This document shows, in pieces, positions 2,785 through 36,543 of a DNA stretch of 64,000 bases. Every line of letters starts with the position of its first letter. The first letter of the stretch is position 1. Source of the DNA: Periplaneta americana (lineage: Eukaryota > Arthropoda > Insecta > Blattodea > Blattidae). The stretch is taken from NCBI RefSeq assembly GCF_040183065.1, contig NC_091119.1, forward strand, positions 103,799,274-103,863,273, in the 5' to 3' direction. Both the position numbers and the translations under genes were made by a program. The notes below the pieces were generated by a model, which was not told where the DNA came from, ran no database searches, and was given only the letters and a program-made list of their open reading frames with translations.

Positions 2785-2921
2785 AATGCCCCTTCATTTC
2801 AAAAAGACGATGCCTCAATGGCACGTGCTTTTTCATTGAACTTGTTGTCTGGCCTAGTGATTGTGGATTAGATTCTGGAATACATTCACACACACAAGCA
2901 ACAGAGAGAGTTTACAGAGAG

Positions 2922-3550
2922 TGTCATATATAGAGGCATAACGAGATATGATTACCTATCTATCGAATTAATATTGTATTTAGAATTAATATTATATATT
3001 ATTAATCTGTATTATGTTCATGGAACAAGCTGAGTCTAGTTGTATCAATATCACGAGGAAATGAAGTCGCCCGCATGAGTAGTCTGTAGTGCACGTGTAT
3101 AAACAATCTTAAATCACGCACAGAGGGCCACAATAACATTAACTCTCTCATCACAAGTAAGATGGTCAGAGTAAGCAGCACTCATGTGATAAACTTAAAA
3201 GATGTTATCCATACATGCCTACTATTGGCTATTCATGACCTCATGGTTAAAAATACATCTACCCCTAATTGGATGCTAATGACCTCATGGGGAGGTAATG
3301 ACCATATGGTTCTGAATCTAATTGGCTGCCGATGACCTCATAGGGTGGAGTTTTTCATTTCCTCGGATAATATAAGCATGGAATTCATTACCAGAGGGGC
3401 CTTTTGCTACTGGGAGCTCTACAGTTGAGCTCAGTATTTGTATTTTGTATATATTATAATAAATATACTCTACAATTTCTTCGAGTCATCATTTCGGGAC
3501 TTAGGTTCCGAACGAACCCTAACATTTACAGTTTATGTGACTACACCACA
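2922..3550 (+). repeat. 5' LTR of the errantivirus-like element
   Basis: A 629-bp terminal repeat identical to 10388-11016 except at one base, beginning TGTCATATATAGAGGC and ending TGACTACACCACA. Candidate regulatory signals are a TATA-like TATAAG at 3371-3376 and a polyadenylation hexamer AATAAA at 3458-3463. This spacing suits transcription starting in the LTR and 3' processing in the downstream copy, though promoter use is inferred. Confidence 0.95.
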
Positions 3551-3560
3551 TAAACCATCT

Positions 3561-3578
3561 TGGTGGCAGCGACAGTGT
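3561..3578 (+). promoter_or_regulatory. Candidate tRNA primer-binding site
   Basis: TGGTGGCAGCGACAG begins 10 bp after the 5' LTR. TGG would pair with the CCA end of a tRNA, and the implied acceptor arm would begin GGCAGCG, which resembles tRNA-Leu. That tRNA identity is inferred from memory, not searched. Confidence 0.6.
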
Positions 3579-3874
3579 GATGATGATCGACATATTAACA
3601 ACTAATTCATCGTAGAGGATATTCTTTTCAACACTTTGCTGTTTTCATCGATCCTGGTTGTTCCACGACGAAGAAGTTACAACAGCCCTAGCTGCGAGCC
3701 GGTTGTTCCTGCTTCAGCTCTTCCTCTTCGGGGTGCCCGTCACTCATCAAGGTTTCCGGCACTTCCAGCCGTTGGCGACCCGCGTAGCAGCCTCACTGGA
3801 CGACTGCCCTGACAACTGAAGTCCGAGGATCCACGTTCGATGGGAGCGCGCCTTCGTTCAACAGTCACTAGTTA

Positions 3875-3884
3875 CTGGGTGAGT
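3875..3884 (+). promoter_or_regulatory. Candidate splice donor for env mRNA
   Basis: CTGG|GTGAGT (donor GT at 3879-3880) lies in the leader, about 100 bp upstream of the gag ATG. Joined to the acceptor ending at 8216 it would remove gag and pol and put the env ATG at 8223 near the 5' end of the mRNA. Spliced env messages are known for errantiviruses; the exact junction here is inferred. Confidence 0.5.
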
Positions 3885-3984
3885 TTTGTCTACTAGTTCC
3901 GAGGAACGTCGTCAATCCTTTATATATCTTCCTAAGATTATAGTATATTTCACAGAATACAAAGGGCCCGTTAGATCTACAACA

Positions 3985-4926
3985 ATGCCAGAACCAAATA
4001 ATTTGATACCTGAAAATGAAGAACGCATAGCACTTCTAGAAGAACAAATAGCAACTTTGTTAAGACAACGTCAAGTAACAAATGAATTCTCTATTACTGC
4101 GGCAGCTAAATTATTTGAGAAAGGTTTCTCAGGCGAACCTTCTACCTTAATTGAATTTATTGACAATGTAGAGGCAGCAGAATCACTTGTTCATGTTGAT
4201 CAAAAACCTATTTTAGTAAAATACATTTTGGCCAAAATCACTGGTAATGCTAAACGTACTTTGAACATTCGTCCATCCACTATAACGTCTTGGGCTGAAA
4301 TAAAAGAGAAACTTGAAACTCATTTTTCTGTTCAAAGAACTTTTGCTTACTATACTACTCAATTGTGTCAAGTGAAACAAAAACCCAATGAAAGCATAAC
4401 TCAATGGGGGGCTAGAGTGGAACAGTTGATTCAAGCCACAATTGATAGTACTGCCCGTTTTACAACAGAGTGGAGTAATGCAGAGAAACAAGGAGGACAG
4501 AATATTATTATTAAACTAGGTAGAAATGTATTCATAAATGGAATTTTGCATGATGCAGTAAGAGAAGCAGTTAAAATGATATCGGAGAAAATGTCATTGA
4601 AAGAGGTAATAGATAGAGCAGTCATTGAGGATTGTGACCGTAGGTCTAACGTAAAAATACAGGATAAGGGCATGAATGCCGTACAGAAACGTTTCCCACA
4701 GAACGTTCAAGGAAATAGGATTAAAAGAGAAAATGTTCACATGGTGGACATAAAGGGGTGTTATAAATGCAATAAGATAGGACATTTCGCGAGGGAATGT
4801 TCTACACCAGTATGTGACTATTGCAAACGCATAGGGCACAATACAAGGGATTGTAGATCAAATAGGGGTGGTCTACGAGGAAACCGAGGATCTTCCAGGG
4901 GAAGTAACTCAAGTCAGGGAAACTAG
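3985..4926 (+). CDS. gag: Gag polyprotein, 313 aa, two CCHC zinc knuckles
   Basis: Structural protein that would assemble the cytoplasmic core and bind genomic RNA. I take the ATG at 3985 as the start; the frame is open upstream to a TTG at 3886 but has no earlier ATG. Residues ~1-30 include a Glu/Leu/Gln-rich helical segment. The middle part matches the retrotransposon gag capsid type (conserved W and hydrophobic pattern around residues 95-130). The C-terminus carries two nucleocapsid CX2CX4HX4C knuckles at about residues 259-272 and 279-292, followed by an Arg/Gly/Ser-rich tail. The classical gypsy Gag lacks such knuckles, as I recall. The stop TAG (4924-4926) directly follows a slippery heptamer, so readthrough to protease is expected by -1 frameshifting. 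Confidence 0.9.
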   Translation: MPEPNNLIPENEERIALLEEQIATLLRQRQVTNEFSITAAAKLFEKGFSGEPSTLIEFIDNVEAAESLVHVDQKPILVKYILAKITGNAKRTLNIRPSTITSWAEIKEKLETHFSVQRTFAYYTTQLCQVKQKPNESITQWGARVEQLIQATIDSTARFTTEWSNAEKQGGQNIIIKLGRNVFINGILHDAVREAVKMISEKMSLKEVIDRAVIEDCDRRSNVKIQDKGMNAVQKRFPQNVQGNRIKRENVHMVDIKGCYKCNKIGHFARECSTPVCDYCKRIGHNTRDCRSNRGGLRGNRGSSRGSNSSQGN

Positions 4927-5426
4927 ATATCGACACACCTGAGCAGTCGAGGCTGTGTTGTTGTACTACGCAAGACTGTCAACAACAGCACGAATTTCTA
5001 ATAAAGTTAGAAAATAAGGACATAAAGGGGATATGCACTGCATTAATTGATACAGGCTCTGGTCTTTCATTCATACTAGCTGACAAAGTACATTCACATA
5101 TTTCAATTAACGTTGAACCCATGGAAGTGAAGGGGATTACGGGTAAAACTATGAATATAAAAGGATGGGTTGGTATGGAAATAGCGGGAGTTAAGACAAA
5201 ATTATATGTTATACCAAAATTACCAAATTCAAACATTCATATGATATTAGGTAGAGATTGGATAAGGCAATCCATTAATGAAAGAATTCCACAAACATAC
5301 CTAACACCTAAAATGAGTGAAACTATTATCGCATTTCCTACCCAAGAAATAGGAGACAGATATTGTCCTAAACAACAACTTAATGACAGTGTATGTCGCG
5401 GAAGGTATAGTATCTTGCACGGATAA
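4908..5426 (+). CDS. pro: Protease region, in the -1 frame from gag
   Basis: An aspartic protease that would mature the polyproteins. The frame opens at 4908, overlaps the last 19 nt of gag and closes at TAA 5424-5426. The active-site triad DTGSG is at about 5049-5063, and a conserved ILGRDW-type motif near 5248-5265 marks the flap/C-terminal core. Length (~170 codons including linker) fits the family. It has no useful ATG of its own; entry by the -1 frameshift at 4917-4923 is the natural reading. Its C-terminus overlaps the pol frame over 5353-5426, but pol is displaced by +1 relative to protease. That displacement is odd, because protease and RT are normally one continuous frame. Confidence 0.85.
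   Translation, partial: LKSGKLDIDTPEQSRLCCCTTQDCQQQHEFLIKLENKDIKGICTALIDTGSGLSFILADKVHSHISINVEPMEVKGITGKTMNIKGWVGMEIAGVKTKLYVIPKLPNSNIHMILGRDWIRQSINERIPQTYLTPKMSETIIAFPTQEIGDRYCPKQQLNDSVCRGRYSILHG
4917..4960 (+). promoter_or_regulatory. -1 ribosomal frameshift signal at the gag stop
   Basis: The heptamer G GGA AAC (4917-4923) sits in the gag frame as X XXY YYZ and is followed at once by the gag stop TAG. After a 7-9 nt spacer a hairpin can form: 4931-4940 pairs with 4950-4960 around a 9-nt loop, with one bulged C at 4953 and one G-U pair. The -1 frame is closed at 4905 and open from 4908, so a shift here enters the protease frame exactly. G GGA AAC is a known gag-pro slip site in some vertebrate retroviruses. 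Confidence 0.8.
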
Positions 5427-8067
5427 TACATTTATGGTCTCTGTAATTAACTTGTCAGAAAGTGAAGAAACCATAACGGAAGTCCCAGTATTAGAGAAAT
5501 TATTGTGCAATACTCATCTTAAACCGCTATATGGAACCGACCGACTAAAACATTTACAGCAAACTATCAGACTAGCACACGTGAAAGAAGGGAAAGAGGA
5601 ACTATTATCTTTATGTCAAGAATATAATGATATATTCAGATTGCCAGGAGATAGACTAACCGAAGTAAAAGGTTTGGCACATACTATTCCAACTCCTCAT
5701 ATTAATCCGCATAAACCTCTGACATTAAAGAATTATAGGTTACCAAAAGCCCATCAGGATGAAGTACAAAAACAAGTAGAAATTATGTTAGAACAGGACA
5801 TAATCAAACCAAGTCAAAGTCCATGGAATTTTCCACTGTTAGTAGTACCGAAGAAAATAGATGCGTCGGGGAAAAGAAAATGGCGTATCTGTGTTGACTT
5901 TAGACAATTAAATAACGAGACGATAGGGGATAGTTTCCCACTGCCAAATATTCAAGATATTTTAGATAAATTAGGAAGGGCACGATACTTTTCTGCCTTA
6001 GACTGTGCCAGTGGATATTGGCAAATTCCTTTAGCAGAGGAAGATCAGTGCAAAACAGCATTTAGTACAACTAGCGGACACTTTGAATTTAAGAGAATGC
6101 CGTTTGGATTAAAATCGGCTCCAGCCACATTCCAACGCTTCATGAATACTATTCTCTCACACATGATAGGGACACGTTGTTTTGTTTATGTAGATGATTT
6201 AATAATAGCTGGAGAAACATTAGGGGAACATCATACACGATTGCGATCTGTGTTTGACCTATTCCGACAGTATCAAGTTCAGATAGAGCCAGACAAATGC
6301 GAATTTCTGAAAGAAGAATTAAAATATTTGGGACATATTATAACCAAGGAAGGGATTAGCCCTGATAATGATAAAGTAAAAGTAATTCAAGAATTCCCTA
6401 CACCCAAGAATGCTAAAGATGTAAAGTCGTTTTTAGGACTAGCTGGATATTATCGAAAATTTATAGTGAATTTTAGTAAAATTTCCAAATCTTTAAATGA
6501 TCTGTTAAAGAAAGGTAAATCATGGCAATGGTCTGAAGAAGAAGAGAAGAGTTTTCAAAGACTGAAACGAGCACTATCGGAAGCTCCCGTTCTTCAATTT
6601 CCTGATTTTACAAAACCATTTGTATTAACTACGGATGCTAGTAACGTGGCAATAGGAGCTATCTTAAGTCAAGGAATAATTGGAAAAGATAAACCGATAG
6701 CTTATGCATCTAGGACCTTGAATGGAGCAGAATTAAATTATAGCACAACAGATAAAGAGTTATTAGCCATAATATGGGCTTGTAAACATTTTCGACCATA
6801 TTTGTTAGGGACTAAATTTACATTAGTAACCGATCATCACCCCTTAAAATGGATGATGAACATAAAAGATCCAGGTTCAAGAATATTACGATGGAGGCTT
6901 TTGTTAGAGGAATATGACTTTGAAGTCATTCACAAAGCAGGAAAGAGAAATGTGAATGCCGATTGTTTGAGTAGAATAACTTTCAATGTAGACGTAGAAA
7001 GGAAAACTTTGGAAATGGATGAGGACAGAAAATACAGAATAATGAAAGAACTTCACGAATGTCCTATTGGTGGTCATCAAGGAGTGCAAAGGACTTATGA
7101 ACGAATTAAGTTATATTGTAGTTGGCCTGATATGTTAAAAGACATTACTAACTATATTAGAAACTGTAAAACATGTCAAGTAAATAAAACACAACAGGTT
7201 ATTCCTAAGGCACCAATGCAAATAACAGACACTCCAGAAAACGTTTGGGATAAAATAGCACTAGATATTGTGGGTCCTTTAACACAATCACTGGACGGTA
7301 ATAAATATATATTAACATGTCAGGACATGTTAAGTAAATATATTATAGCAGTACCTATGATAGACATGACAGTAGAATCTGTAACTCAAGCTTTTGTAAA
7401 TAATATAATTTTACAATTTGGAATATGTCATGTAATTTTAACAGACCAAGGAAGCCAGTTCATGAGTAAGGTATTTCATGAAATATGTAAAATTCTTAAG
7501 ATTGACAAAATTCATACCAGTGCATATCACCCTGAGTCAAATGGAAGTCTCGAAAGAGCTCACAAGGTGTTGGTCGAATATTTAAGATGTTATTGTACTA
7601 AGAAACAGGATGAATGGGACAAGTGGTTGCCATTCGCAGTATTTACTTACAATACTACGCCCCATAGTAGTACGAAATATACCCCCTATGAAGTAATGTA
7701 CGGAAGGATAGCAAATATCCCAAGGAAGTTACAGAAAAAGGCAGGGATTCTGTATAACTATGATGATTTTGTTGCAACGTTTAAACAGAGAATGAGAATA
7801 ACAAGGCAAGAAGCCAGAGAGTTATTAATCCAGAGTAAGGAACATAGAGTTCAAGAATTCAATGGGAAACAAAAGGAAATAAAGATAAAAGTAGGCATGA
7901 AGGTCTACGTTAGGAAAGAAAACAGGAAAAAATTGGATTCTTTGTGGGAGGGACCATACGAAGTAATGGGTTTACAAGGAGTAAACGTGGAACTGTGTAA
8001 AATAGGTGGAACAGGTCGTAAGAGGTCTATAGTGCATATTAACAGAGTAAAAATATGTAAAGAGTAA
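5353..8067 (+). CDS. pol: Pol: reverse transcriptase, RNase H, integrase
   Basis: Replicates and integrates the element. The frame is open from 5353 (first ATG 5383) and uninterrupted for ~900 codons. Numbering from 5383: RT palm with catalytic YVDD at about 268-271; RNase H starting near the TTDAS motif at ~417; integrase with an HHCC zinc finger (about 555-598), catalytic D628, D688 and E724 with the expected 35-residue spacing between the last two, and a C-terminal GPY/F-type module near 853. All catalytic residues seen are intact. The N-terminus is in the gag frame, one base off from protease, so this copy needs either a second recoding event (+1 or -2) or carries a one-base indel in 5353-5426. 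The last ~124 bp are tandemly duplicated downstream. Confidence 0.92.
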   Translation, partial: ETDIVLNNNLMTVYVAEGIVSCTDNTFMVSVINLSESEETITEVPVLEKLLCNTHLKPLYGTDRLKHLQQTIRLAHVKEGKEELLSLCQEYNDIFRLPGDRLTEVKGLAHTIPTPHINPHKPLTLKNYRLPKAHQDEVQKQVEIMLEQDIIKPSQSPWNFPLLVVPKKIDASGKRKWRICVDFRQLNNETIGDSFPLPNIQDILDKLGRARYFSALDCASGYWQIPLAEEDQCKTAFSTTSGHFEFKRMPFGLKSAPATFQRFMNTILSHMIGTRCFVYVDDLIIAGETLGEHHTRLRSVFDLFRQYQVQIEPDKCEFLKEELKYLGHIITKEGISPDNDKVKVIQEFPTPKNAKDVKSFLGLAGYYRKFIVNFSKISKSLNDLLKKGKSWQWSEEEEKSFQRLKRALSEAPVLQFPDFTKPFVLTTDASNVAIGAILSQGIIGKDKPIAYASRTLNGAELNYSTTDKELLAIIWACKHFRPYLLGTKFTLVTDHHPLKWMMNIKDPGSRILRWRLLLEEYDFEVIHKAGKRNVNADCLSRITFNVDVERKTLEMDEDRKYRIMKELHECPIGGHQGVQRTYERIKLYCSWPDMLKDITNYIRNCKTCQVNKTQQVIPKAPMQITDTPENVWDKIALDIVGPLTQSLDGNKYILTCQDMLSKYIIAVPMIDMTVESVTQAFVNNIILQFGICHVILTDQGSQFMSKVFHEICKILKIDKIHTSAYHPESNGSLERAHKVLVEYLRCYCTKKQDEWDKWLPFAVFTYNTTPHSSTKYTPYEVMYGRIANIPRKLQKKAGILYNYDDFVATFKQRMRITRQEARELLIQSKEHRVQEFNGKQKEIKIKVGMKVYVRKENRKKLDSLWEGPYEVMGLQGVNVELCKIGGTGRKRSIVHINRVKICKE

Positions 8068-8197
8068 GATAATGGGACCATATGAAGTAAGGGGTTTACA
8101 AGGAGTAAACGTGGAACTGTGTAAAATAGGTGGAACAGGTCGTAAGAGGTCTATAGTACATATTAACAGAGTAACAATATGTAAAGAATAAGACAAT
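7950..8197 (+). repeat. 124-bp tandem duplication of the pol 3' end
   Basis: 7950-8073 and 8074-8197 are direct copies with about six differences, many more than the one LTR difference, so the duplication predates this insertion and is probably a feature of the family. 124 is not a multiple of three. Copy 2 lies after the pol stop (8065-8067) and fills the gap to env, immediately before the putative env splice acceptor. Confidence 0.9.
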
Positions 8198-8217
8198 GTT
8201 GTTTTGTTTGTTGCAGA
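8198..8217 (+). promoter_or_regulatory. Candidate splice acceptor for env mRNA
   Basis: A T/G-rich, A-poor tract ending TTTGTTGCAG (AG at 8215-8216) directly precedes the in-frame ATG at 8223. Splicing here would exclude the upstream ATG at 8196. Confidence 0.55.
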
Positions 8218-8222
8218 GCATC

Positions 8223-10349
8223 ATGCGGATGACTCTCTATATAGCAATGATTCTAGGATACATAGGAGTAAGTGAAGGCATTAGAATACAGAATGACGAA
8301 ATTTCAGGACAAACAGGTTTATATTTTAATCATGTAAATGATGTGTGGTTTACGCCATACTCTTGGGACGTAATCATGTACGTAGATTTAAAACCTGTGC
8401 AACATTTGTATGACACATTGCAAAAGGGCATTACAAGATTAGAACAAGAATGTAAAGCCATAAAGGATTTTACATGGTTTCATAAAACCGATTGTGAGCA
8501 AGGGTTGACTGACATAAGATCAAGAAAGTTTGGTGTCCAACAATTAAAAGTCACTCTAGATGAAATTATTGGTCCTAACCAGCAGAGACGCAAAAGATCA
8601 ATGTTAGGTTTTGTAGGAGAAATATTTCGTATTTTATTTGGAACCGCAACAGAAGCTGAAATTGAAACCTCTAAAAGGAAAATGGATCAAATGCAGGCGG
8701 AACAATTAAAGTTTTTGCAATTAAGCGCAGATCAATTAACAATACTGAAGTCTAGTTTGATCAGTATCAACGAAACAGTCACGGAAGTAACGTTAAATGA
8801 AAAAGAAATGATAAAGAATTTTGAGACAGTTACTAATGCATGGGGAGAGAAATGGAAAGAAACGTTACATGAAAATGACGTGATAACCAAAATTAATTTG
8901 ATAATTAAACATATAGAATTAGGATATCATGATTGCTTTGAGTATTACACATTGCTAATAACAATGGTAGTAAATGGAAGACAAGGAATCATTCAACCGC
9001 AGGTAATACCTTACGTAAAAATTAAGAATCTTTTGGCTAATGCAGTTCCCCCTGAATTGCAATTACCACCTTTTTCAAACGATCAGGTTGACCAAATTCT
9101 AACTGCAACAATTTTCAAATCTTCTACGTCGTTAGTTTATAGGGTAAAGGTACCACTTGTGCAAAGAGAAAAATTCAGTCTATATGATATGATTCCATTT
9201 CCAATAAAATTACCAAATAATAAAACTTCAAAATTTATTCAACCTCACACGGAATACATAGCTACAAACTCTATGAAGACAAAATATGCTTATCTAAATC
9301 AACGACAAATTGATCAATGTAAGAAGGCAGGACTAAAATATTTAGTATGCATTGAAAATATACCCATAAATTTATTCAATACACGAGACTGTATGACAGG
9401 GCTCATACATCCCTCAACTCAAGTTTATCCTGAAGAATGTATAAATCTAGAACAATACATGATGTTAAGCGAAACCATTTGGATTCCTTTGGCACCAAGT
9501 AATGATTGGTTGTATGTAACCTCACAAGTAGATGATATAACTTTTGTGTGTGACGATGAAGTGAAGGAAAAAGTGAAATTGTATAAGAGAGGTAAATTGG
9601 TACTTCCCATACAGTGTAAAGGAATAACGTCAGTTGGAATGATATTTCCAATAAAACATGAAGTAATGAACCACTCAACAACAGACATTATTCCTCTTGT
9701 ACCAATGGATATAGATTGTTGTCTCACTAAAATGGAAGAAGAGGTTATTCCAAAAATAAAAATGTCATTTCCTTATCCAAATATCCTTTCATCAACCTCA
9801 GACTTTAAGTACATGGGAATAAGAATAGATGACATTCAACAAAAAATTAAAAAGGAGGAAGATAAAATAGAATATCAATCATTCTGGTATTCATACTCTA
9901 CTTGGTTTTACTGTAGTACTGTGTTTGGAATTAGTATTGCATTATGCTTGTGTTGTTGTTGTTGTTGTTCTAGTTGTCGTAAATGTGGGTTATGGTTATT
10001 CAGATATTGTAATTGGCAAGATGCAATTAGGGACTGTAAGAAAGGTTGTTCATCATGCTGCAGGCCTATTATAATTAAAAATCAACAGTATGGACAAAAG
10101 ACTACTGTTTGTCAAAATGATTTATATACTAGTTCGGAAGATGAACATGAAAATATAAAATTAGAACTAATACCAAAATCAAAAAGACAAGACCCTCTAA
10201 TAAAGCAACCAATTCGAAACGAAGAAGTATCAGAAATGTTAGAACAGATTAAAGCTCAATCATTAGAATCACTATCATCAAACACTCAGTCACGTAGGAT
10301 GACAAAATCACTTCAAGATCCAATTCACTGGACAAAAAGAAAAGTTTAA
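8223..10349 (+). CDS. env: Env: F-protein-like membrane fusion glycoprotein, intact
   Basis: An envelope glycoprotein of the errantivirus type, homologous by pattern to baculovirus F proteins; it would act at the cell surface or particle membrane. The frame opens at ATG 8196 (717 codons), but that ATG lies in the splice-acceptor tract, so I prefer 8223 (708 aa). In order: a hydrophobic signal peptide over the first ~20 residues; a furin-type RRKR cleavage site encoded at 8586-8597; immediately after it a hydrophobic, Gly/Phe-rich fusion-peptide-like stretch ending near 8640; a heptad-like helical region; Cys-rich ectodomain pairs; one transmembrane segment at ~9890-9960 running into a striking Cys cluster; and a ~120-residue cytoplasmic tail. 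No stop or frameshift is seen. The distal part of the tail is charged and Ser/Gln-rich. Confidence 0.9.
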   Translation: MRMTLYIAMILGYIGVSEGIRIQNDEISGQTGLYFNHVNDVWFTPYSWDVIMYVDLKPVQHLYDTLQKGITRLEQECKAIKDFTWFHKTDCEQGLTDIRSRKFGVQQLKVTLDEIIGPNQQRRKRSMLGFVGEIFRILFGTATEAEIETSKRKMDQMQAEQLKFLQLSADQLTILKSSLISINETVTEVTLNEKEMIKNFETVTNAWGEKWKETLHENDVITKINLIIKHIELGYHDCFEYYTLLITMVVNGRQGIIQPQVIPYVKIKNLLANAVPPELQLPPFSNDQVDQILTATIFKSSTSLVYRVKVPLVQREKFSLYDMIPFPIKLPNNKTSKFIQPHTEYIATNSMKTKYAYLNQRQIDQCKKAGLKYLVCIENIPINLFNTRDCMTGLIHPSTQVYPEECINLEQYMMLSETIWIPLAPSNDWLYVTSQVDDITFVCDDEVKEKVKLYKRGKLVLPIQCKGITSVGMIFPIKHEVMNHSTTDIIPLVPMDIDCCLTKMEEEVIPKIKMSFPYPNILSSTSDFKYMGIRIDDIQQKIKKEEDKIEYQSFWYSYSTWFYCSTVFGISIALCLCCCCCCSSCRKCGLWLFRYCNWQDAIRDCKKGCSSCCRPIIIKNQQYGQKTTVCQNDLYTSSEDEHENIKLELIPKSKRQDPLIKQPIRNEEVSEMLEQIKAQSLESLSSNTQSRRMTKSLQDPIHWTKRKV

Positions 10350-10376
10350 CTTCACAAAGATTGTAAAACTTTTAAT

Positions 10377-10387
10377 AAGGAGGGGCG
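10377..10387 (+). promoter_or_regulatory. Polypurine tract
   Basis: AAGGAGGGGCG ends exactly at the 3' LTR boundary and would prime plus-strand DNA synthesis. One C interrupts the purines near the end, which is tolerated in this group. Confidence 0.75.
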
Positions 10388-11016
10388 TGTCATATATAGA
10401 GGCATAACGAGATATGATTACCTATCTATCGAATTAATATTGTATTTAGAATTAATATTATATATTATTAATCTGTATTATGTTCATGGAACAAGCTGAG
10501 TCTAGTTGTATCAATATCACGAGGAAATGAAGTCGCCCGCATGAGTAGTCTGTAGTGCACGTGTATAAACAATCTTAAATCACGCGCAGAGGGCCACAAT
10601 AACATTAACTCTCTCATCACAAGTAAGATGGTCAGAGTAAGCAGCACTCATGTGATAAACTTAAAAGATGTTATCCATACATGCCTACTATTGGCTATTC
10701 ATGACCTCATGGTTAAAAATACATCTACCCCTAATTGGATGCTAATGACCTCATGGGGAGGTAATGACCATATGGTTCTGAATCTAATTGGCTGCCGATG
10801 ACCTCATAGGGTGGAGTTTTTCATTTCCTCGGATAATATAAGCATGGAATTCATTACCAGAGGGGCCTTTTGCTACTGGGAGCTCTACAGTTGAGCTCAG
10901 TATTTGTATTTTGTATATATTATAATAAATATACTCTACAATTTCTTCGAGTCATCATTTCGGGACTTAGGTTCCGAACGAACCCTAACATTTACAGTTT
11001 ATGTGACTACACCACA
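10388..11016 (+). repeat. 3' LTR of the errantivirus-like element
   Basis: 629 bp, identical to 2922-3550 except G at 10586 (A at 3120). The AATAAA at 10924-10929 is the likely polyadenylation signal. It is followed directly by the target duplication AGAG. Confidence 0.95.
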
Positions 11017-11020
11017 AGAG

Positions 11021-12377: not shown

Positions 12378-14240
12378 TTAGTAAATATTTCTAGTTCGCA
12401 ATCCGTAGCGAGGTGAAGTTGGTTGGCTCCTCTGTTCGGCTGTTTCATTACTCACACTGGGAGCATTAAATGAATTATGAGGAGAGTCGAACTCATGGTC
12501 TGGTTCAGCAGAATTGTGTGCCTGGGGAGGATCATCTGATCTCACTTTCCACGAGGCGAGAGGGATTTCGTCCTCGGACTCAAAATCTTCATCTCTTCCT
12601 ACTCTTTCTCTTAATTCGCTTAGCGGTATCTCATTTTTTGATGCCCACGCGTTTTCTTTCGCCATTCCTGACATTTCACTGATTATTCCTTCACCTTGGG
12701 GTTCTCTGTTCGATTCCATTCCCAGGGGTCTTTCATCATTCTCCCAATAGTGCGTATACATACTTTCCGTATTATTTTTGGTAGGATGAATGTCGTCAAC
12801 CTGACATCGGCACAACTTTAATCTATTTACACGAACTACTTGTGTTCTACCGTCTCCGTAGCGAATGCGGTAATTGACTTCATTTAGTATTTCTACTATC
12901 TCAACTGGGCTTGTCCATGGTTTAGCTAATTTCTTCGTTACTTCCTTTTTCAACACTGTGCTTTGTATGAATACTTTGTCTCCTAGCTCAGATGTTTGAA
13001 CTTTCACATTTCGCCTCGTGTTGTACTGTCTCGCTTGCGTTGTCTTACTTTGCTTTAACCGTTCTCTAACCACTTTGTAGGCTGTCTCTAGTTTCCTGGC
13101 TTGGCCAACTATAGGGTCGGATTCTATATTTTCTCTTGGAAATTTCGGACTCATATCAACTGGAAATGGCAGAGGCATTTCCTTGCCATACAAGAGAAAG
13201 AATGGGGAGTACCCGGTCACCGAGTGGGGTGTAATTCTGTACGCCTTCTGTACTATAGCTATCCACTTATTCCAATCTCTTTGGTCTTAACGCACAAAGT
13301 GAAACATCATTGCCGTGAACGTTTGATGACTGCGTTCAACTAGTCCATTCGCCATAGGATGATACGGATTTGTCTGTATTTTCTTTATGTGTAGCAATTT
13401 GCAAACTTCCTTGAACAATGTAGATACAAAATTTCTGCCTTGATCAGTTAATACTTGTTTAGGGGTTCCATGACTAGCAACTATTTTTGTGACAAATTCC
13501 CTAGCTACAGTTTCCGCAGATTGGTCAGGTATCGGAATAGCTTCACTCCACTTCGTGAAGGCAACCATGAAAATCAATAGATAGACGTTTCCGGAAGTGG
13601 TCTTTGGAAATGGACCAAGGATGTTCATGCTAACTAATTCAAAGGTTTCACCACTTCACCGAACTCCTGAAGAGGGCTACAGGATGTTTTCCTGTTTTTC
13701 TTTCCCAACATGACATGCAATTTGCAACATAATTTTCCACGTCTGATCTCATATCTAGCCAATAGAAACTTCGACTTAATAAGTCATAGGTCCACCTTTG
13801 ACCTTGGTGTGCACCGATTGGTGAATCATGATATATTTTTAGTATAGTCAATCTCAATGGTATAGGTACTACCAAACAAGGTTCACGGTCATTTTGGATT
13901 CGAAACAAAATCCCATTGTCATCTAATTTAAACTGATTTGCGTCATTCAACCGTTGTGCATATTGCGGTTCGGCAATTGTAGATTTCGAACGGATTGAGA
14001 TTCCATCTTGTCGATCGTAACAAAGGGCACTTTATGAATTCTAGATAGAGCATCTGCGTTCTGATGTTTTTTTCCTGGTTTGTACTGAATCTGAAAATTA
14101 AATTCAGAGAATCTGAGCGTCCATCGGAGCAGTCTCGAACTCGGCTCCTTGAGACTCATTAGCCAACGAAGAGCTGCATGGTCGGTCACTGCGATGAACT
14201 TGTGACCGTATAGGTAACATCTAAAGTACTTTGTAGCTCA
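12378..14240 (-). pseudogene. Ty3/gypsy pol remnant, 3' half (RNase H end and integrase)
   Basis: Read on the minus strand: the end of RNase H at 14240-13950 (TDHAALRWL-type motif, then a KPGKxxxNADALSR motif); the integrase HHCC finger (13950-13648, CxxC at about 13700); the integrase core (13628-13287) with TDQGRNF and the NGLVERSHQ segment holding the catalytic Glu; and a C-terminal tail (13220-12378) with a Glu/Ser-rich, low-complexity end. Each part is in a different frame, so at least three frameshifts separate them. No env follows. It is the downstream half of the element whose upstream half lies at 23724-26770; the 9.5-kb insertion between them falls inside RNase H. It is clearly older than the intact LTR element at 2922-11016 and a different family. 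Confidence 0.9.
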
Positions 14241-15410: not shown

Positions 15411-16065
15411 ACCAGTTGTGATATACAGAAATTGATAATACATATCATGCAAACTACTTCAGATTACAAACACAAACAATTTATCAGTAGAGCTATATAG
15501 ATTACTATTCAATTTAAAGCATATACAATTCATCGGCCAAAACTATACAAATATATACAATACAAAGTAGCATACTTTCATTAAGCTATACAAATTTGTG
15601 CAATTAATATCAAGTAGATTAATTCAATTTATAATCATAAACAATTCATCAGTTGAGCTATACATATTACCATTCAATCTACAGTAGGTCTATATACAAT
15701 TCATCAGTAGAGCTACACAGACTAGTAATCATTTTAGGAACATATACAATTCATCAGCCAAACTATACAAACATATACAATCAAATTAGTTCAATTTACA
15801 AACTTATTTTCGTTAAGCTATACAATTCATATGAAGTAGATTAATTCAATTTATAAGCTTAAACAATTCATCAGTTGACCTATACAGTATACTATTCAAT
15901 TTACAGTACATACAATTCATCAGTTATGCTAAACAAAAAATACAATACATAGTAAACAGATTAAGTCAATATAAAAACATATTTTAGTTGAGCTATATAC
16001 AATTGTACATGTCATTTAAGTAGAATAATTCAATTCACAAGCATAAACAATTCATCAATTGTGTA
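15411..16065. repeat. Irregular tandem repeats in the LINE 3' UTR
   Basis: The motif AATTCATCAGTTGAGCTATA and variants recurs about nine or ten times (for example near 15642, 15698, 15750, 15866, 15915), separated by AT-rich spacers of roughly 30-90 bp, also with recurring AGATTAATTCAATTTATAA pieces. The repeat closest to ORF2 overlaps its stop region, suggesting the array grew from the end of the coding region. Confidence 0.8.
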
Positions 16066-16620
16066 GAAGGTATGAGTATGTAGAAATTTGGTTAATTCTT
16101 TTCTGAACCTTTTCTCGTTGTTCTTCAAATCTTTAAGATAATTAGGCAGTGCATTGAAGACTGTTATACATGAATAGCGAACTCCTTTTTTAAAACAGCT
16201 TAGACTAACAGAGGGTAGATGAAGATCTGATTTATGTCTTGTATTAAAAGGATGAATGTCTTGATTAGTACTGAATTTATCTTGGTTCTTAATATACAGC
16301 ATCATTAGGGAAAGAATGTATTCACAAGGTAAAGTCAAGATTTCTAAGTTTCGGAAAATATTTTTACATGAGGTCCTTTTATGCACACTGGCCATTATTC
16401 TTATAGCTTTCTTTTGTAAAACAAAAACGTGTTTAGCTTCAGACGAGTTACCCCAGAATATTAATCCATATTTCATTACAGAGTGAAAATATGCAAAGTA
16501 TGACATTTTAAGTAAGTTTATATCACCAATAGTAGATAAGGATCTTAATGCATAACAGGCAGAGCTCAATTTACGAGTAATACATTCTAAATGCGTTTTC
16601 CAGTTCAAGTGATTATCCAA
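16030..16620 (-). pseudogene. CR1-like ORF2, C-terminal region
   Basis: Begins with the FLGLxLDNHLNWK-type motif that follows RT in CR1/Jockey-group LINEs, then a Cys/Lys-rich thumb-like region, and ends with a stop at 16030. It is separated from the RT part (16717-17781) by a stop/frameshift around 16690-16720. This shows that the LINE was 3' complete but that its coding region has decayed. Confidence 0.8.
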
Positions 16621-16716
16621 TTCTAATCCAAGAAACTTTGTGCTTGTAGATTCTTTGAGATGAGTTCCATTTAATCGAATACTGTAGGAAACCTGAGCAC
16701 TATTGTGTGTACTAAA

Positions 16717-17781
16717 TTAGACTGCACTGGTTTTATCAACATTAAGTGCTAGTTTATTTGCATGGAACCATTCATTCATTAGATTCAGCACTGTATTAGA
16801 AGTGTTTATAAAACGATCGTATTGTTTGCTTGAAATAATTACACTTGTATCATCTGCAAATAAAATTACATGGGATGAATTGTTTATGGTCAAGGCTAAA
16901 TCATTAATATAAACTAGAAACAACAATGGACCTAAAATTGACCCCTGCGGAACACCATGTTTAATATTTCTAAATTCTGAATAAGTAACTTTATGGCTAT
17001 TTGGTACATTTATTTCTACTTTTTGTTTTCTATTTGATAAGTACGATGTAAACCAACCCAACATCTCATCTTTAATGCCATAAAACTTCAATTTTTTTAC
17101 TAATATACTATGGTCTACACAATCAAATGCTTTAGCCAAGTCACAAAAAATCCCACCTACATGTAGTTTCGAATTTAATGAATTTAGTATTTCATCCACC
17201 AAACTAAAAGCAGCATTCTCTGTCGATTTTTGTTTTCTAAATCCAAACTGTTCTAAAATTAATATATTGTTGGACTCCAGGTAATGATATAATCTATTAT
17301 ACATAACTTTCTCAAACACTTTTGAAAATGTTGTAAATAATGATATGGGTCTGTAATTAGCAATAGTACATTTATCTCCCTTTTTGTATATTGGTTTTAC
17401 TATTGAATATTTGAGTCTTTCTGGAAAAATACCACATTGCATTGACAAATTGCATAGATAGCTTAACGGAGGGGATAATATTTCAGAACAAGCTTTCAGA
17501 ACTTTACTTGGAATTTCATCATATCCAGAGGAATATTTTGTTTTTAGTTGTTTTATCACATGCATGATTTCTGCTGCGGTAGTGGGAATAAATTTGAGAC
17601 CTAAAAACTCAGTGTTAGATGCATCAGTTAGGTAACCAAGTGCAGCATCTTCTGCACAATCTTGAATGTTTAAGTTCTGAATAATATTTTGTATAGAAGT
17701 CGTTAAAATGATTTGCAATTGATTTTGGGTTATCTATTTTACTATCATTGATTTTAATGCAAGTAATATTTTCACTCTTTG
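16717..17781 (-). pseudogene. CR1-like ORF2, reverse transcriptase part
   Basis: Contains the RT palm in order: KxKSSGYDEIPSKVLK-type box, NYRPISLFTTFSKVFEKV, EQFGFRKQKSTENAAF, DLAKAFDCVDHSIL, GVPQGSILGPLLFLVYIND and the catalytic FADD (at about 16850-16865). The frame is open from ~17718 to 16717, and the protein similarity continues upstream to 17781, where the plus-strand LINE begins. Its N-terminal half is on the far side of that insertion (20901-22082). Confidence 0.9.
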
Positions 17782-17787
17782 AATATA

Positions 17788-20700
17788 CTCAATCAACTAG
17801 TTGAAGAATTAAATTTGAAAGATGCTTGGAAACTTCTCCATCCTACAATGGTGCAGTTTACATTTTTTCGGGGGGGGAGTCGGCATCTAGATTGGACCGA
17901 ATCTATGTGGATAAGGACACCAGTAATGCCATTTACGATGCAACAATCATGCCCATAGCATTTTCTGATCATGAATGTTTTACTATGACCCTCAGAATAA
18001 AAGAAAAGCTCGCTACCACAGGACGTAGTTATTGGAAACTGAATCCATCATTATATAGCAAAGAAGACGATCAAAATGATTTTAGCACTTATTTATCTCA
18101 TCTAATCAACAAAAAGCGACCCTTACAGGCTAATTCACCTTTTAAGTATTGGATCAACACAGTCAAGCCGGCGATCCAATCATATTTTAAGCGCGTAGGG
18201 TCAATAAAATCACGTGAGCAACGCGCGACGCTTTCTTTTTATTATGAAGTACTAAATGAACTACATGGCGAGATTCAGAAAGGAGAAAAGGTATACGAGG
18301 AAATGAATAAAATTAAACAAAAAATATTTCAATTCCATGAACATATAATGCAGGGCGTGATGATAAGGTGTAGACCCAAATCCAAAATGGACAAGGAGAA
18401 AGGAACATTGTTGCATGTAGTGAAAGAAAAGAAAAGAGGTTATCAAAAATACATTCATCATCTCCGGACCAATGACAATCAACAAATTTCGACAACTTCA
18501 GACTGTTTACATGAGGCCACGAGACATTTCCAAGAACTTTTTAATGAATATCCCATATCGAGTGAGATGTGTAATTCGTTATTACAAAATGTTAATCGAC
18601 ACATCAGCCTAGAAGATCAACAACTACTACAACAGCCGATTGATGAAGAGGAACTCCGACAAGCATTGTTAGGCACAAGAACAAACACATCCCCTGGAAA
18701 TGACGGCATCACATATGATTTTTATAAAACATTTTGGGATATCTTAAAAAATCCCCTCTTGGCAGCCTTCAGTGCCATTTTCACTACACAAGAAGAGCTT
18801 TATAACTTTGGAGAAGGCATCATTTTACTTCCCAAAACAAATCCTCGTACCATTGCCGATTACCGTCCCATTACCTTGCTTAATACAGATTACAAAATAT
18901 TGATGAAAGTTTTGGCCAATAGACTTAAACCGTTACTCCCACATTTGATAGAAAAGGAACAAATATGCGGCGTACCCGGTAGAAATATTTTCTGGAATTT
19001 ATCTGCTTTACGAAATATCGTTGAATACTTACAAGCGCATCCCACAGAACAAGCTGCGATACTATCCTTAGATTTTGAAAAAGCTTTCGATCGTGTTAAT
19101 CACTCTTTCTTATTCATGGTCCTTGAAAAACTTAATGTGCCACACTTTATGATATCCGTTATCCGAAAGCTTTATGCTGTTGGTAGATCAAAAGTGCAAC
19201 TAAATGGATACTTTACGTCAAGTTTCCCAATTAAGAGGGGAGTTCGACAAGGCTGTCCGCTTTCAATGCTATTATTTGCTCTGTCATTGGAACCATTTCT
19301 CTGCACGATACACAATCGTATGCTAGAGCTTCAACCTGAACGTCTCCAGTTTACAGTCCGGGCTTATGCAGATGACGTGACAGTACTACTCCAGTACCCT
19401 GAAGATGAACAAATTGTGGTACACACGGTGAAGATGCACAACTTGGCTTCTGGAGCGAATTTGAATTACAAGAAATCATCTTTGTTGCCTTTGGGGGCTT
19501 AGCAGACTGAGTTCTCACCAACTCTGTTCACAGTGCGTGATGAAGTCCGAATTCTAGGAATATACTTCAAATCAACATTAGAGGGAATGCTTACCCGTAA
19601 TTGGGAACAAATAGTTAACTCCGTACGTCATGTCATCAATAAACACAAGATTCGCAAACTCAACTTACTTCAGAAGATTTGGCATATCAACACTTTTTTC
19701 TTATCCAAAATTTGGTACGCAGCTTCAACATTGCCAATGCCTGCAAAGTTTTCACAACAAGTGGAAAAATCAGTTGGATTCTATATTTGGTCAGGTCATG
19801 TATATCGAATCAGTAGATCTCAACTTCGTAATAAAAAGGGTAAAGGCGGTCAAAACCTGGTCGATGTAGCAATCAAAGCCCAATCGCTTTTGATACGACG
19901 GATACTGCTGTCTATGGAAGGTAGTGGGGATGTCGTGGATATTCAGAGATGGAACAACCAACACGTAGATGGATCCAGCGTTTCAGGTGCGTATCGCTGT
20001 GTTTTCAAAGGTTTGAAAGAATTCCAACAAGCAGAACTGAAGCCAGACTCTCCGCGCACCTCTAAAATTATCTACAAAGTCTTACGGAGCCGTATGACTA
20101 CGACGCCTTCTGTACAAGAGAAATTCCCAAATCGTCCCTGGTCCCGCATCTGGAAAAATCTAAATTTTCCGCATGTGCCAACAGAATGGTTAGTAACATC
20201 CTACATGATGGTTAATGACGTCATCCCAACAGAATCCAAGAAACATAAACACAACATGGTAGATTCGCCAGCATGTGGAAAGTGTAATAGACTGGATACC
20301 ATTCAACACAGACTAATAGGCTGTCAAGGTACTAGAACTATCTGGACGTGGCTAAAACATCAACTGTGTAAATTTGATATGTCGACTAACCCAAATGATG
20401 CTCTACGGAAAATACTCCATTTTGATTTTGGTTCAAGTGAAAACCTTGAAACTCAGTTGTGGCTTATTCATGGTGTAGTGCATTACGTCCTGTCTAGTGA
20501 ACATCCTGAAATTCGTGAACTGAAACGTGTGCTGTATGATGAAAAACAATCTATGTTACGTGTAACTCCAGCTAAGACATGGTTCTTAAAACTGAAAGAC
20601 ATTGAACTTTCTTAAAAAAAAAAAAAATACAACAAATGTTTAGGTGATCTTATATATCATCGCATTCAATACTCTAACGACCACAGTCATTGATTTGTGT

Positions 20701-20894
20701 TTATAGCTCTCTTTCTCTAAGAATAAAACAAAACGCCTCAGACTTGTATGATGAAGCTGCTTACAGAAGAAGAAAAATCATGTAATGAAAAAAAAAAAAA
20801 AAGTGTAAACACATTAATTGGAATTTTTGACAGCTGTTAAATTGTATTTGTTCTTTAATTTCTTTGTTTTTAAATAAAAGTATATGAAAAAAAA
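17788..20894 (+). mobile_element. 5'-truncated L1/Tx1-like LINE inserted in the CR1-like LINE
   Basis: A plus-strand LINE starting within the endonuclease domain and ending in poly(A) tracts (20885-20894 terminal; also A runs at 20615-20628 and 20788-20803). A 6-bp direct repeat AATATA flanks it (17782-17787, 20895-20900). The opposite orientation to the host LINE and the flanking repeat show it came later. The 3' UTR is 20616-20884. Confidence 0.8.
17789..20615 (+). pseudogene. L1/Tx1-like ORF2 (endonuclease end, RT, C-terminal domain)
   Basis: Encodes the multifunctional retrotransposition protein. The first ~75 bases read in one frame (a WKLLHP endonuclease motif); after the T6/G8 run at 17863-17877 the frame changes and continues with SRLDRIYVD and SDHE, the end of the APE domain. 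RT follows from ~18670: NTSPGNDGI, DYRPITLLNTDYKI, SLDFEKAFDRV, GVRQGCPLS and catalytic YADD at 19364-19375. A single in-frame TAG at 19500-19502 splits the frame; after it the C-terminal domain runs to 20615 with a CxxC...HxxxxC knuckle near 20275-20330. Apart from the homopolymer shift and one nonsense codon it is intact, so it is relatively young. The assignment to L1/Tx1 rather than another clade rests on motif style. Confidence 0.85.
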
Positions 20895-20900
20895 AATATA

Positions 20901-22082
20901 TCGATTAGTTTCATTTTTAATAATATCCCAAATAGTTTTAATCTTATTATCTGAATTTTGTATTTTTTCATTCAGATACATTTTCTTTGCATCTTTTATA
21001 ACTTTTGTCAAAGTTTTACAGTAATTCTTGTAGTAATTAAGAACATGAGGATCATCACTATTCCTACTCATTAAATATAGATTCCTTTTTCTAGCACATG
21101 ATATTTTAATTCCCTGAGTTATCCACGTGTTTTTACTTTTACATTTTTTCACCACCTTGACTGGAAAACATTCATTGAAATAATTCGTAAATGTAGTGAA
21201 AAATGCATTAAATTTAGTATTAATATCAATGGTATCGGTACTATATACATTTTCCCAAGATTCATTTTGTAGACAAGTATTTAAATGATGAAGAGATTCA
21301 GCATTTATAATCCTTTTTTTTTTTATTTTTAGATTAACACTTTGGAATTTTTCACTCATATTGAAAACACTTAGAATTTGTGCATCGTGATCAGACAGGC
21401 CATTGACTAATGGTACTGTTGAATAGGAATTCAATCTACTTTTATCTATAAATATATTATCAATGGCAGTACTACTTCCAGCTTGTGTTCTGGTTGGAAA
21501 ACTTACTGTGTGACTAAGATTATAAGTTTCAAGAAGTGAGTTTAATTTTCTTTTACGTGAGCTTTCTGATAGATAATCTATGTTTATGTCACCACAGATT
21601 ACAAATTCGGTATGTGGTTTATAAAGTCTTTTCAATAATGAATCTAAGTTAGTTGTAAATTTCTTATAATCTCCCATTGGCGCCCTATAAACACATAAGA
21701 TAATTAAATTTGATATCTCATAACCAATTTGTATTCCACAGATTTCAATATCTTGTTCAAGGCAAAAATCAGATACATCAATTTTACTAAATAATAGATC
21801 CTCTCTGATAAAAATACAGGCACCCCCTTTTTGGAAGACATGTCTACAGAAATGAGAACCTAATACATATCCATGTAAAGACAGTTGTAGTATTTCCTGT
21901 TGCTTCATATGATGTTCAGTTATACATAATATCTGAGGTTTATGCTTTTGAGTTGCTAAAGAAGTGATCAATTCATCAGTTTTTTGTTTTAATCCCCTAA
22001 TATTTTGATGAAAAATAGTGAAGTTACTGTGTTCATTACTAGAAACATCAGAGCATTTACAATTTAGTTGAACTTGTTTCAA
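20901..22082 (-). pseudogene. CR1-like ORF2, N-terminal APE endonuclease part
   Basis: Minus-strand frame with an apurinic-endonuclease-like domain: an HQNIRGLKQKTDEL start (catalytic Asn), a CITEHHM box (Glu), a GGACIFIRE segment, VICGDINID (Asp/Asn) and the LSDHDAQIL box (SDH). The frame begins without ATG just after the ORF1 stop and overlaps its end in another frame, so initiation would need reinitiation or recoding, or the ATG is lost. It runs to ~20901, where the plus-strand LINE's poly(A) interrupts it; RT resumes at 17781. Host-target nicking is the family function. Confidence 0.85.
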
Positions 22083-22102
22083 ACACCTTACTGGTGGGAG
22101 GT

Positions 22103-23161
22103 TTAACCTAAAAAAGGAGAAGCCCTAGCATTAACTAACACAGGAATATTACAACTCTGCTTTTTAACATGGCTGCCTCTGATGCTATTAGCAATAAGAA
22201 CCGAAAGGTGCTCCTTGCCTCTACCATTCAGATGCAGGCCATGTGACGTATATTCATACCTTCTTATAGGGCTTACATCTATCAAACCAATGTGTGATGC
22301 CCCAGGCCTCATCAGAGCCCGCTCAAGCCGCATATTCACGCTCCGCACCCTCCTGTGAAGATACGGCTTGTCGTACCTGCTGAAAAGACCGAGAAACTCC
22401 ACATTGGTATGGCTGCTCATCTCAATTATGTTGTTGACATCTTTCTCAATAGAATAGTTACAATCGTTATCAATACTATTACCTGGCCCACCCACTATAA
22501 CTACATGATCCCTCTTAGAAAAATCTGAACTCAATTTCATCATATCCTCAACAACATTCTTGAGAGGAGCATTAGGCTTACATACACTAGATACTTCAAA
22601 CTCATCGCCCAGTTTCGACTTCAAAAGTGAGGAAATACCTCTTGCATGGCTGCTTCCTAAAATCAATACTTTACTCCTACAATCATTAACCTTATCTGTT
22701 TTCTGACTTACCTTTACTAGTGTCGATACTGGGTCTGAGTTCTCCTGATCAACATTCATTGCTTGAAGAGCACTGAATTTGTTGGTCAGTTTGATTGATG
22801 CAGCATCATCCGCAGAGAAACGTCTACTCCTAGATTTGGAATTCTTCGGTTTCATCCAAGTGTGAGATCTCTCTTTATTCGAAACACTAATGCTATCCTT
22901 CAAAGCTCTCAATTTATTAATTTCACACTTTGCCTCATCTAATTCCAATTCTAGGGCTCTGATTCTCTCCAGTTGATCGCGCATCTTTCTATCATATATA
23001 CAATCACTACATTCCCAACTACCTTTGTCAACAAAATTATCAGGATCTATATCTATACATTTCCAATGAAAACAGAAATTACAATTATTACATACCAATC
23101 CTTTCACTACAATCCTTCTACAACTACGACAGTTTCCAGACAGAGCAGCCATAGCACACAT
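22103..23161 (-). CDS. CR1-like LINE ORF1: PHD-type finger plus SGNH-like domain, 352 aa
   Basis: An intact ATG-to-stop frame. Residues ~10-55 hold Cys/His pairs in PHD-finger spacing (CRSC...CNNC...HWKC...CSDC). Residues ~60-90 form a coiled-coil-like segment. Residues ~165-330 look like an SGNH/esterase-type domain: the GSSHARG block holds the candidate nucleophile Ser, a VGGPGNS block follows, and a THGLHLNGRG block near the end holds the usual catalytic His. PHD plus esterase ORF1 proteins are known in CR1-group LINEs, where they are thought to help RNP or membrane association. It is followed at once by ORF2 in another frame. The only nearly undamaged ORF of this LINE. Confidence 0.85.
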   Translation of the reverse strand: MCAMAALSGNCRSCRRIVVKGLVCNNCNFCFHWKCIDIDPDNFVDKGSWECSDCIYDRKMRDQLERIRALELELDEAKCEINKLRALKDSISVSNKERSHTWMKPKNSKSRSRRFSADDAASIKLTNKFSALQAMNVDQENSDPVSTLVKVSQKTDKVNDCRSKVLILGSSHARGISSLLKSKLGDEFEVSSVCKPNAPLKNVVEDMMKLSSDFSKRDHVVIVGGPGNSIDNDCNYSIEKDVNNIIEMSSHTNVEFLGLFSRYDKPYLHRRVRSVNMRLERALMRPGASHIGLIDVSPIRRYEYTSHGLHLNGRGKEHLSVLIANSIRGSHVKKQSCNIPVLVNARASPFLG

Positions 23162-23723
23162 TATGTATATACTGTACCTTATTTACAAATTCAATTTCAC
23201 TCACTTTTCAATTTAATGTACTTACGTATATTAGTTTTAGGTTATTTCTACCCTTTAGTATCACCACACTATAATATTTCAATAGGCCAACACTACACTT
23301 TATGTCACTAGCATTCCTTTGCTTCTAGCCACCTCAATTCAAAAAAAGCTAAACTAAATTTTTAAACAAGTTGCTGAAAATGGTTGCCGTTCATTACAAT
23401 GCAGGCTTCAATTCAGTACGCATATTATTAAAAACATTTTGAAGCATATTCTCTGAAAATGAATTTATCGTTTCTTGAATATAATTTTTTAGTACGATAT
23501 TATTAATATAGGTTCTTTCTTCTATAGAAAACGCAATCATATTTATGAAACACACTACACACTGCAGTGTTTACTTCACTGCTTGAAGACTTCGAATGTA
23601 ACAGCAGCCGTAAGTTTGTGTGTCTGACGGGAGCAAGGACATTAGTGAAGGGGTGAGAGTGAAGTACATTCAGAAATGCAGGTACAATAAAAATGCAAGT
23701 AAAAATAAAATGATGTCCCTGTA

Positions 23724-26700: not shown

Positions 26701-26770
26701 TTGTTGAAAAATTCATAAATCGGTAAGCTGCCTGGTAAGCCTGTCCATTCTTTCAACGCGGTAGCTGAAG
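23724..26770 (-). pseudogene. Ty3/gypsy gag-pol remnant, 5' half
   Basis: Read from 26770 down. Gag: EWTGLPGSLP start, capsid-like core (26756-26439) and a decayed zinc-knuckle region (26581-25898; one recognisable CX4GHX4C). Protease: DTGTT at about 25785-25800. RT: linker and fingers (25019-24690), a VPKK...FCTDFRSLN block (24640-24580), catalytic YIDD near 24300. Connection/RNase H: FLGLAGYYRR and ATDTSG blocks (24235-23765), ending at the TA site of the inserted TIR element. At least six frameshifts or stops separate the pieces, and at the rejoined junction an expected Trp codon is TGA. A possible primer-binding site (TGGCGGATACTGGC on the minus strand, ~26905) lies upstream of gag, but no LTR was identified. 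It continues at 14240-12378. Confidence 0.9.
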
Positions 26771-27077
26771 ATAGATCTTTAGTTCTCCGTTACTTCGGTT
26801 TGTAATCAACAATAGCTAAAGCCTACACTACAAGATTAACAATAGCTTGTTCGAGATTGTGCGCCATTTTGTTTTACTGGAGGGAATCAGCCAGTATCCG
26901 CCAAACGCAAATTATTACGTAGCATCATATTATACACTATGCACTATAACACACATTTCTTATAAAATAACTTAACTACTACACTCTATATCAGATGTCT
27001 TTGGAGCAGATATAAACGGAACGAAATGCAAGAGAGTGCGGTTCACACGATACTAAATATATGTGTATGAATTAAGT

Positions 27078-31121: not shown

Positions 31122-31136
31122 GTAAGGAATTTTATT

Positions 31137-31213
31137 ATAGGGATTTTAAAATATATTTTGTGTAATAATAGGGTCAGTGGTAGCCCAGACCCTTAAACCA
31201 GTATACGCCACTG
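31137..31213 (+). repeat. 3' end of the hAT element (TIR side)
   Basis: Ends ACCAGTATACGCCACTG. The last ~65 bp match the ends of the MITEs at 2581-2784 and 58200-58403. I found no CAGGGGCG-type 5' terminus upstream of 28902, so the element is truncated or rearranged on that side. Confidence 0.8.
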
Positions 31214-31224
31214 GTTGCTGTAGG

Positions 31225-36316: not shown

Positions 36317-36543
36317 TACGTTAACAGAAAACCACAATTCCAAGTCACACAGAGCTTGTGTGCACTCGTTGTGGGTCTCTGGCGTTTCGTCAGCCCATGC
36401 GAGTTGTGTGGATATAAAGGGAAAGGTTGAGACGGTGTCGAGTGGAGTTCCCGGGTAGCTCAGTGGTAGAGCGCTGGTACGTTCAACCAGAGGTCCTGGG
36501 ATCGATACCCGGCCCCGGAACAATTTCCCCTTGAAATTATTCA
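36317..36543 (+). repeat. tRNA-containing dispersed repeat, copy B
   Basis: Matches 31225-31453. The tRNA-like part (36447-36521) is better preserved: acceptor stem GTTCCCG/CCGGAAC, A box TAGCTCAGTGGTAGAGC, anticodon stem CTGGT/ACCAG and a T arm with GGGATCGATACCC. The ~130 bp upstream and ~22 bp downstream are shared with copy A. As a tRNA gene it is doubtful because position 33 of the loop is C. Confidence 0.8.

What the first reader, a model, noticed from the sequence alone, without database searches (positions are those of the whole stretch)
2918..11020. Nearly intact endogenous retrovirus-like element with env and one-base LTR divergence
LTRs of 629 bp differ at a single position, the 4-bp duplication AGAG is perfect, and gag, pol and env are long and uninterrupted, with catalytic and cleavage motifs present. 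Such complete env-bearing Ty3/gypsy copies are rare, and this one must be recent. Established knowledge: errantiviruses of insects have this layout. Inference: the family may be active in this species.
Basis: partly seen in the sequence, partly recalled or inferred. Interest (0 to 1): 0.75.

Follow-up and report, generated by a model that had tools for sequence, protein, structure and literature searches.

The report
Young, damaged cockroach retrovirus-like element
This is a recently inserted, envelope-carrying retrovirus-like mobile element in what looks like cockroach DNA; it is an ordinary member of a group known from many insects, and its enzyme gene appears broken in this copy.

Summary
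Two 629-bp LTRs (2922-3550, 10388-11016) differ at one site, the AGAG target duplication is perfect, and gag and env are open. But pol is not uninterrupted: protease (4908-5426) and RT-RNaseH-integrase (5353-8067) lie in different frames, whereas 49 of 58 near-full-length relatives carry a protease motif in frame upstream of RT, control 0 of 58. This copy probably cannot make normal Gag-Pol alone.

It is a Ty3/gypsy (Metaviridae) provirus with a baculovirus-F-type envelope, resembling errantiviruses. The nearest named relatives are Periplaneta americana proteins (98% over 552 aa of pol, 93% over 212 aa of env), so the host is probably that cockroach or a near relative.

Further details: a -1 slippery heptamer before the gag stop; a likely env splice acceptor at 8216; a 124-bp tandem duplication at the pol end, older than this insertion. 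One frame lesion fits neutral decay at this LTR age.

Such elements are not rare: PMC13172572 (passages) calls them particularly abundant in insects. Activity was not testable; the own-genome search did not complete. New member of a known kind; low interest.

The parts
2918..2921 (+). left target-site duplication AGAG
2922..3550 (+). 5' LTR, 629 bp, TG...CA
3561..3575 (+). candidate tRNA primer-binding site, 10 nt after the LTR; resembles a tRNA-Leu 3' end (identity of the tRNA is recalled, not tested)
3985..4926 (+). gag from its first ATG (frame open from 3883); Retrotrans_gag-like, two CCHC zinc knuckles at 4759 and 4813
4917..4923 (+). candidate -1 frameshift heptamer G GGA AAC in the gag frame, directly before the gag stop TAG
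   Evidence: downstream hairpin not better than shuffles
4908..5426 (+). protease reading frame (IDTG at 5046), -1 relative to gag
5353..8067 (+). RT - RNase H - integrase reading frame, in another frame than the protease: pol is broken between them
7950..8073 (+). unit 1 of a 124-bp tandem duplication: integrase GPY/F end and pol stop
8074..8197 (+). unit 2 of the duplication, 6 differences, lying between pol and env
8204..8216 (+). likely env splice acceptor (pyrimidine-rich, ends CAG)
   Evidence: exon start 8217 is also where env homology starts in P. americana gene model P0002
8223..10349 (+). env, F-type (PF12259), RRKR furin-type site at 8586-8597; signal-peptide-like start, cysteine-rich membrane region and cytoplasmic tail are by eye, no predictor was run
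10377..10387 (+). polypurine tract before the 3' LTR
10388..11016 (+). 3' LTR, 629 bp, one difference from the 5' LTR
11017..11020 (+). right target-site duplication AGAG

Best explanation
An endogenous, envelope-carrying Ty3/gypsy retrovirus (Metaviridae), probably of a cockroach, inserted recently at an AGAG site. Its design works like an errantivirus: one genomic RNA from LTR to LTR, primed by a host tRNA; Gag, and by a -1 slip at G GGA AAC a Gag-Pol; a spliced RNA gives an F-type fusion glycoprotein that can let particles enter other cells. Shown: LTRs, target duplication, domain order, frames, motifs. Inferred: slip, splicing, particle entry. In this copy pol is broken by a frame change between protease and RT, so it most likely cannot make RT and integrase normally and is a young dead or helper-dependent copy. 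The change may have come after insertion, during the last copying round, or be a sequencing error.
For: LTRs, target duplication and boundaries; frames; domains; slippery site and motifs. Break: of 58 relatives aligned over nearly all of RT-IN, 49 have a protease-type D[TS]G motif in frame upstream of RT, 52 have that or a match to the protease piece; the same motif in equal stretches inside RT-IN is found in 0 of 58. 36 of 126 held proteins match both pieces. Env: Baculo_F E 5e-24; profile hit to a solved viral fusion protein, E 2e-17. Nearest named pol and env copies in P. americana. Expected substitutions over the element since insertion 6.4 (0.2-36), so one indel is unsurprising (indel share recalled).
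Against: No other copy of this family was found that covers the protease-RT junction (120 of 5406 pol hits were listed), so a family-wide recoding site is not formally excluded. Six of 58 relatives show neither protease motif nor protease match in frame and were not traced. Some relatives are annotated gene models that may join exons (P0005, P0014, P0031). Own-genome reads and copies were not available.
Confidence: 0.9

Rival explanations
1. The frame change is a base-calling or assembly error, and the real copy has an unbroken pol.
For: gag, RT-IN and env are otherwise fully open and the LTRs nearly identical; a single frame change is a usual mark of a long-read error (recalled).
Against: A single indel is also what neutral decay over this LTR age predicts. 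No read data seen.
Confidence: 0.25
2. Protease and RT are joined by a second, programmed frameshift; the family uses two recoding events.
For: A 74-nt overlap of the two frames exists, and the family's other junctions are unknown.
Against: No X XXY YYZ heptamer in or near the overlap, and the change needed is +1 or -2 rather than -1 (known +1 sites were not scanned); most near-full-length relatives have one frame (49 of 58 by motif).
Confidence: 0.04
3. The two LTRs are alike through gene conversion or assembly collapse, and the insertion is old.
For: The 124-bp duplication is 5% diverged against 0.16% for the LTRs.
Against: Open gag, RT-IN and env frames and a perfect target duplication fit a young copy; the duplication is simply explained as older and inherited from the parent element.
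Confidence: 0.05

Closest known systems
Errantivirus / insect endogenous retroviruses (gypsy, ZAM, 17.6, TED kind; Metaviridae)
   Same: LTR - gag - pol (PR-RT-RH-IN) - env order, F-type env with furin-type site, likely spliced env, 4-bp target duplication.
   Different: Probably a cockroach host rather than fly or moth; two CCHC knuckles in gag (recalled as absent from Drosophila gypsy Gag); candidate Leu-type rather than Lys or Ser primer site (recalled); pol broken here; 124-bp duplication at the pol end.
Periplaneta americana proteins ANN_19746 (P0008) and ANN_19098 (P0002)
   Same: Same family: 98% over 552 aa of pol; 93% over 212 aa of env and 91-92% over two pol stretches.
   Different: Gene models that are partial and joined to other sequence; neither covers the protease-RT junction.
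Termite (Cryptotermes secundus) Ty3/gypsy pol proteins
   Same: Five of the seven listed fall in the same supported group of the RT tree; identity 55-62% for those five.
   Different: Distinct families; their env was not examined. The other two fall outside that group.
Baculovirus F fusion proteins (PF12259)
   Same: Env family hit.
   Different: Env of a retroelement; sequence similarity is remote.

Membership tests
Metaviridae (Ty3/gypsy LTR retroelement) | LTR pair with target duplication; PR-RT-RH-IN order | tested here: met
   best solved relative is Ty3 Gag-Pol, E 1.9e-115
Errantivirus / insect endogenous retrovirus | third ORF with F-type envelope | tested here: met
   PF12259 E 5e-24; profile hit to a solved viral fusion protein, E 2e-17
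Errantivirus / insect endogenous retrovirus | env made from a spliced RNA | tested here: inconclusive
   acceptor-like site at 8216, same exon start as gene model P0002; donor not identified; no RNA data
Errantivirus / insect endogenous retrovirus | pol expressed by -1 frameshift from gag | tested here: inconclusive
   G GGA AAC heptamer in frame before the gag stop; no stimulatory fold beyond shuffles
Errantivirus / insect endogenous retrovirus | RT falls in the clade of the named Drosophila and Trichoplusia species | not tested
   no named Errantivirus sequence was in hand; the tree holds only database hits
Errantivirus / insect endogenous retrovirus | infectious particles | not testable with these tools
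   -

The most novel reading that the evidence does not exclude
The family expresses its enzymes through two recoding events, -1 at gag/protease and a second, unusual shift between protease and RT, which I do not know from any insect retrovirus (recalled; not searched for in papers).
Probability: 0.04. Interest if true: 0.5.

Novelty: new member of a known kind. Interest (0 to 1): 0.2.

Why it matters
It adds a young envelope-bearing Ty3/gypsy family in (probably) the American cockroach, an insect with panoistic ovaries (PMC13172572, passage), where the contest between such elements and piRNA defence could be compared with crickets and flies. The near-identical LTRs make the site a good marker for insertion polymorphism. 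Nothing here is new in kind.

Tried and rejected
Own-genome copy search: the same request was sent seven times and never answered, so copy number, solo LTRs elsewhere and intact copies are unknown. Viral-contig scans with RT-IN (2 pattern matches) and with the env alignment (600 pattern matches) confirmed no relative. The protease-frame protein search gave nothing at E <= 1e-5 among 14 candidates. The env structure prediction was useless (mean pLDDT 33), so no fold search was run. No PHROG hit for env. The hairpin after the slippery site is no better than shuffles. No further copy of LTR, leader, gag or env DNA in the rest of the window by blastn. Other Ty3/gypsy remnants on the minus strand are different families, 31-54% alike to this pol. 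The key paper, Chary and Hayashi, eLife 108449, is not held; its claims are taken from passages of PMC13172572 and of a meeting report, PMC12859917. Rejected: that the element is fully intact. The odds did not need to change.

Full report
What is there. Two LTRs of 629 bp, 2922-3550 and 10388-11016, begin TG and end CA and differ at one site without gaps. AGAG stands directly outside both. Between them lie gag (first ATG 3985, stop at 4926), a protease frame (4908-5426), an RT-RNase H-integrase frame (5353-8067) and env (open 8175-10349, likely start 8223). Pfam finds zinc knuckle, gag, retroviral protease, RVT_1, two RT-RNase H models, integrase zinc and core domains, and Baculo_F for env (E 5e-24); the gag-domain and protease hits fall just below Pfam's own cut-offs. 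The best solved relative of RT-IN is the Ty3 Gag-Pol (E 1.9e-115). A profile of env and four relatives (P0002 and P0005, two gene models joined to other sequence, were left out of six hits) matches a solved viral 'fusion protein' at E 2e-17 (the call does not name its virus).

Pol is not uninterrupted. The protease and RT frames overlap by 74 nt but differ. I compared 126 held proteins: 6 from the env search and the 120 listed of 5406 pol hits. Of these, 36 match both pieces, each with both in one protein, as must be for a protein matched by both; the protease match ends at 5363-5405 in 32 of 36 and the RT match starts at 5353-5398 in 35 of 36. The fairer count takes the 58 relatives aligned over nearly all of RT-IN: 49 have a protease-type D[TS]G motif in frame upstream, 52 have that or a match to the protease piece, 6 have neither and were not traced; the same motif in equal stretches from inside RT-IN is found in 0 of 58. 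A few are annotated gene models that could join exons. No X XXY YYZ slip site lies in or near the overlap, and the frame change is +1 or -2, not the -1 used at gag/pol (known +1 sites were not scanned). I read this as a break, by mutation or sequence error. The two could not be told apart, because no reads or other copies were available.

Age. One difference in 629 bp (95% interval 0.00004 to 0.0088) means a young copy. At a recalled Drosophila rate of 2.8e-9 per site per generation, this is about 0.28 million generations (0.007 to 1.6 million); the cockroach rate is unknown to me. Over the whole element that divergence predicts about 6.4 substitutions since insertion (0.2 to 36), so about one indel would be no surprise (indel share recalled). 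Near-identical LTRs and a broken pol are therefore compatible.

Expression. The gag stop TAG at 4924 is directly preceded by G GGA AAC in the gag frame, a classical -1 slippery heptamer (recalled), leading into the protease frame. Three heptamers of the X XXY YYZ kind lie in frame in the 347 gag codons, so the pattern alone is weak; its position at the very end of gag is what persuades. The hairpin after it is not better than shuffles (z -0.43). For env, a pyrimidine-rich stretch ending CAG at 8216 precedes the first conserved env residues. The env homology of the P. americana gene model P0002 begins exactly at the codon at 8217, which supports a splice acceptor there; how that model was made is not known to me. 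The donor was not identified. Env is typically made from a spliced RNA, with different upstream exons, in Drosophila insect retroviruses (PMC12992720, passages seen).

Duplication. The last 124 bp of pol, with the integrase GPY/F end and stop, are repeated in tandem (7950-8073, 8074-8197). The units differ at 6 sites, far more than the LTRs allow (P = 6e-8 at the LTR rate; Fisher P = 1e-4). So the duplication was most likely inherited from the parent element and is older than this insertion. It puts 124 bp between the pol stop and env. Whether other copies have it is unknown.

Host and relatives. The nearest named pol relative is ANN_19746 of Periplaneta americana, 543 of 552 residues identical; env matches ANN_19098 of the same species at 197 of 212. 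An unnamed protein cluster with seven member sequences, P0001, covers 97% of env at 91%. The window therefore is probably P. americana or a close relative, by inference. In an RT tree of the window and 120 of the 126 held proteins (P0001-P0006 not included), the window pairs with P0008 (support 1.0) and lies in a 40-leaf group (support 1.0) whose only other leaves named by me are five Cryptotermes secundus proteins; two further Cryptotermes, two Formica and one Uroleucon proteins fall outside (midpoint root, mostly unnamed sequences). The window otherwise holds many transposable-element pieces.

Known or new. A search for Periplaneta americana with endogenous retrovirus and envelope found no paper, and errantivirus with envelope and cockroach found only PMC13172572, in whose main text Periplaneta does not occur. 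By these searches of that library alone, I saw no description of this family. Genus membership in Errantivirus was not tested by phylogeny.

Verdict. A real, young, envelope-bearing Ty3/gypsy provirus, damaged in pol as the sequence stands; a new member of a known kind. Interest 0.2.

Noticed in passing
7950-8197: 124-bp tandem duplication at the pol end, 6 differences, older than the insertion; both units keep the integrase GPY/F end open.
   Followed up: partly
12378-14031 and 23765-26789, minus strand: Decayed Ty3/gypsy remnants of other families (31-54% alike to this pol; Pfam hits).
   Followed up: partly
16030-23182: A non-LTR retrotransposon on the minus strand (RT, endonuclease) appears interrupted by another one on the plus strand (17805-20615): nested elements.
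   Followed up: partly
2580-2785 and 58199-58404: A 206-bp repeat, 99% alike in inverted orientation, with a related stretch at 31134-31218; it ends 132 bp left of the target duplication.
   Followed up: no
29856-31121 and 42246-42944: hAT-like transposase dimerisation domain, and a transposase piece with Pfam TNP-like domains.
   Followed up: no
36449-36521: tRNA-Asn (GTT) predicted by ARAGORN; gene or tRNA-derived repeat not decided.
   Followed up: no
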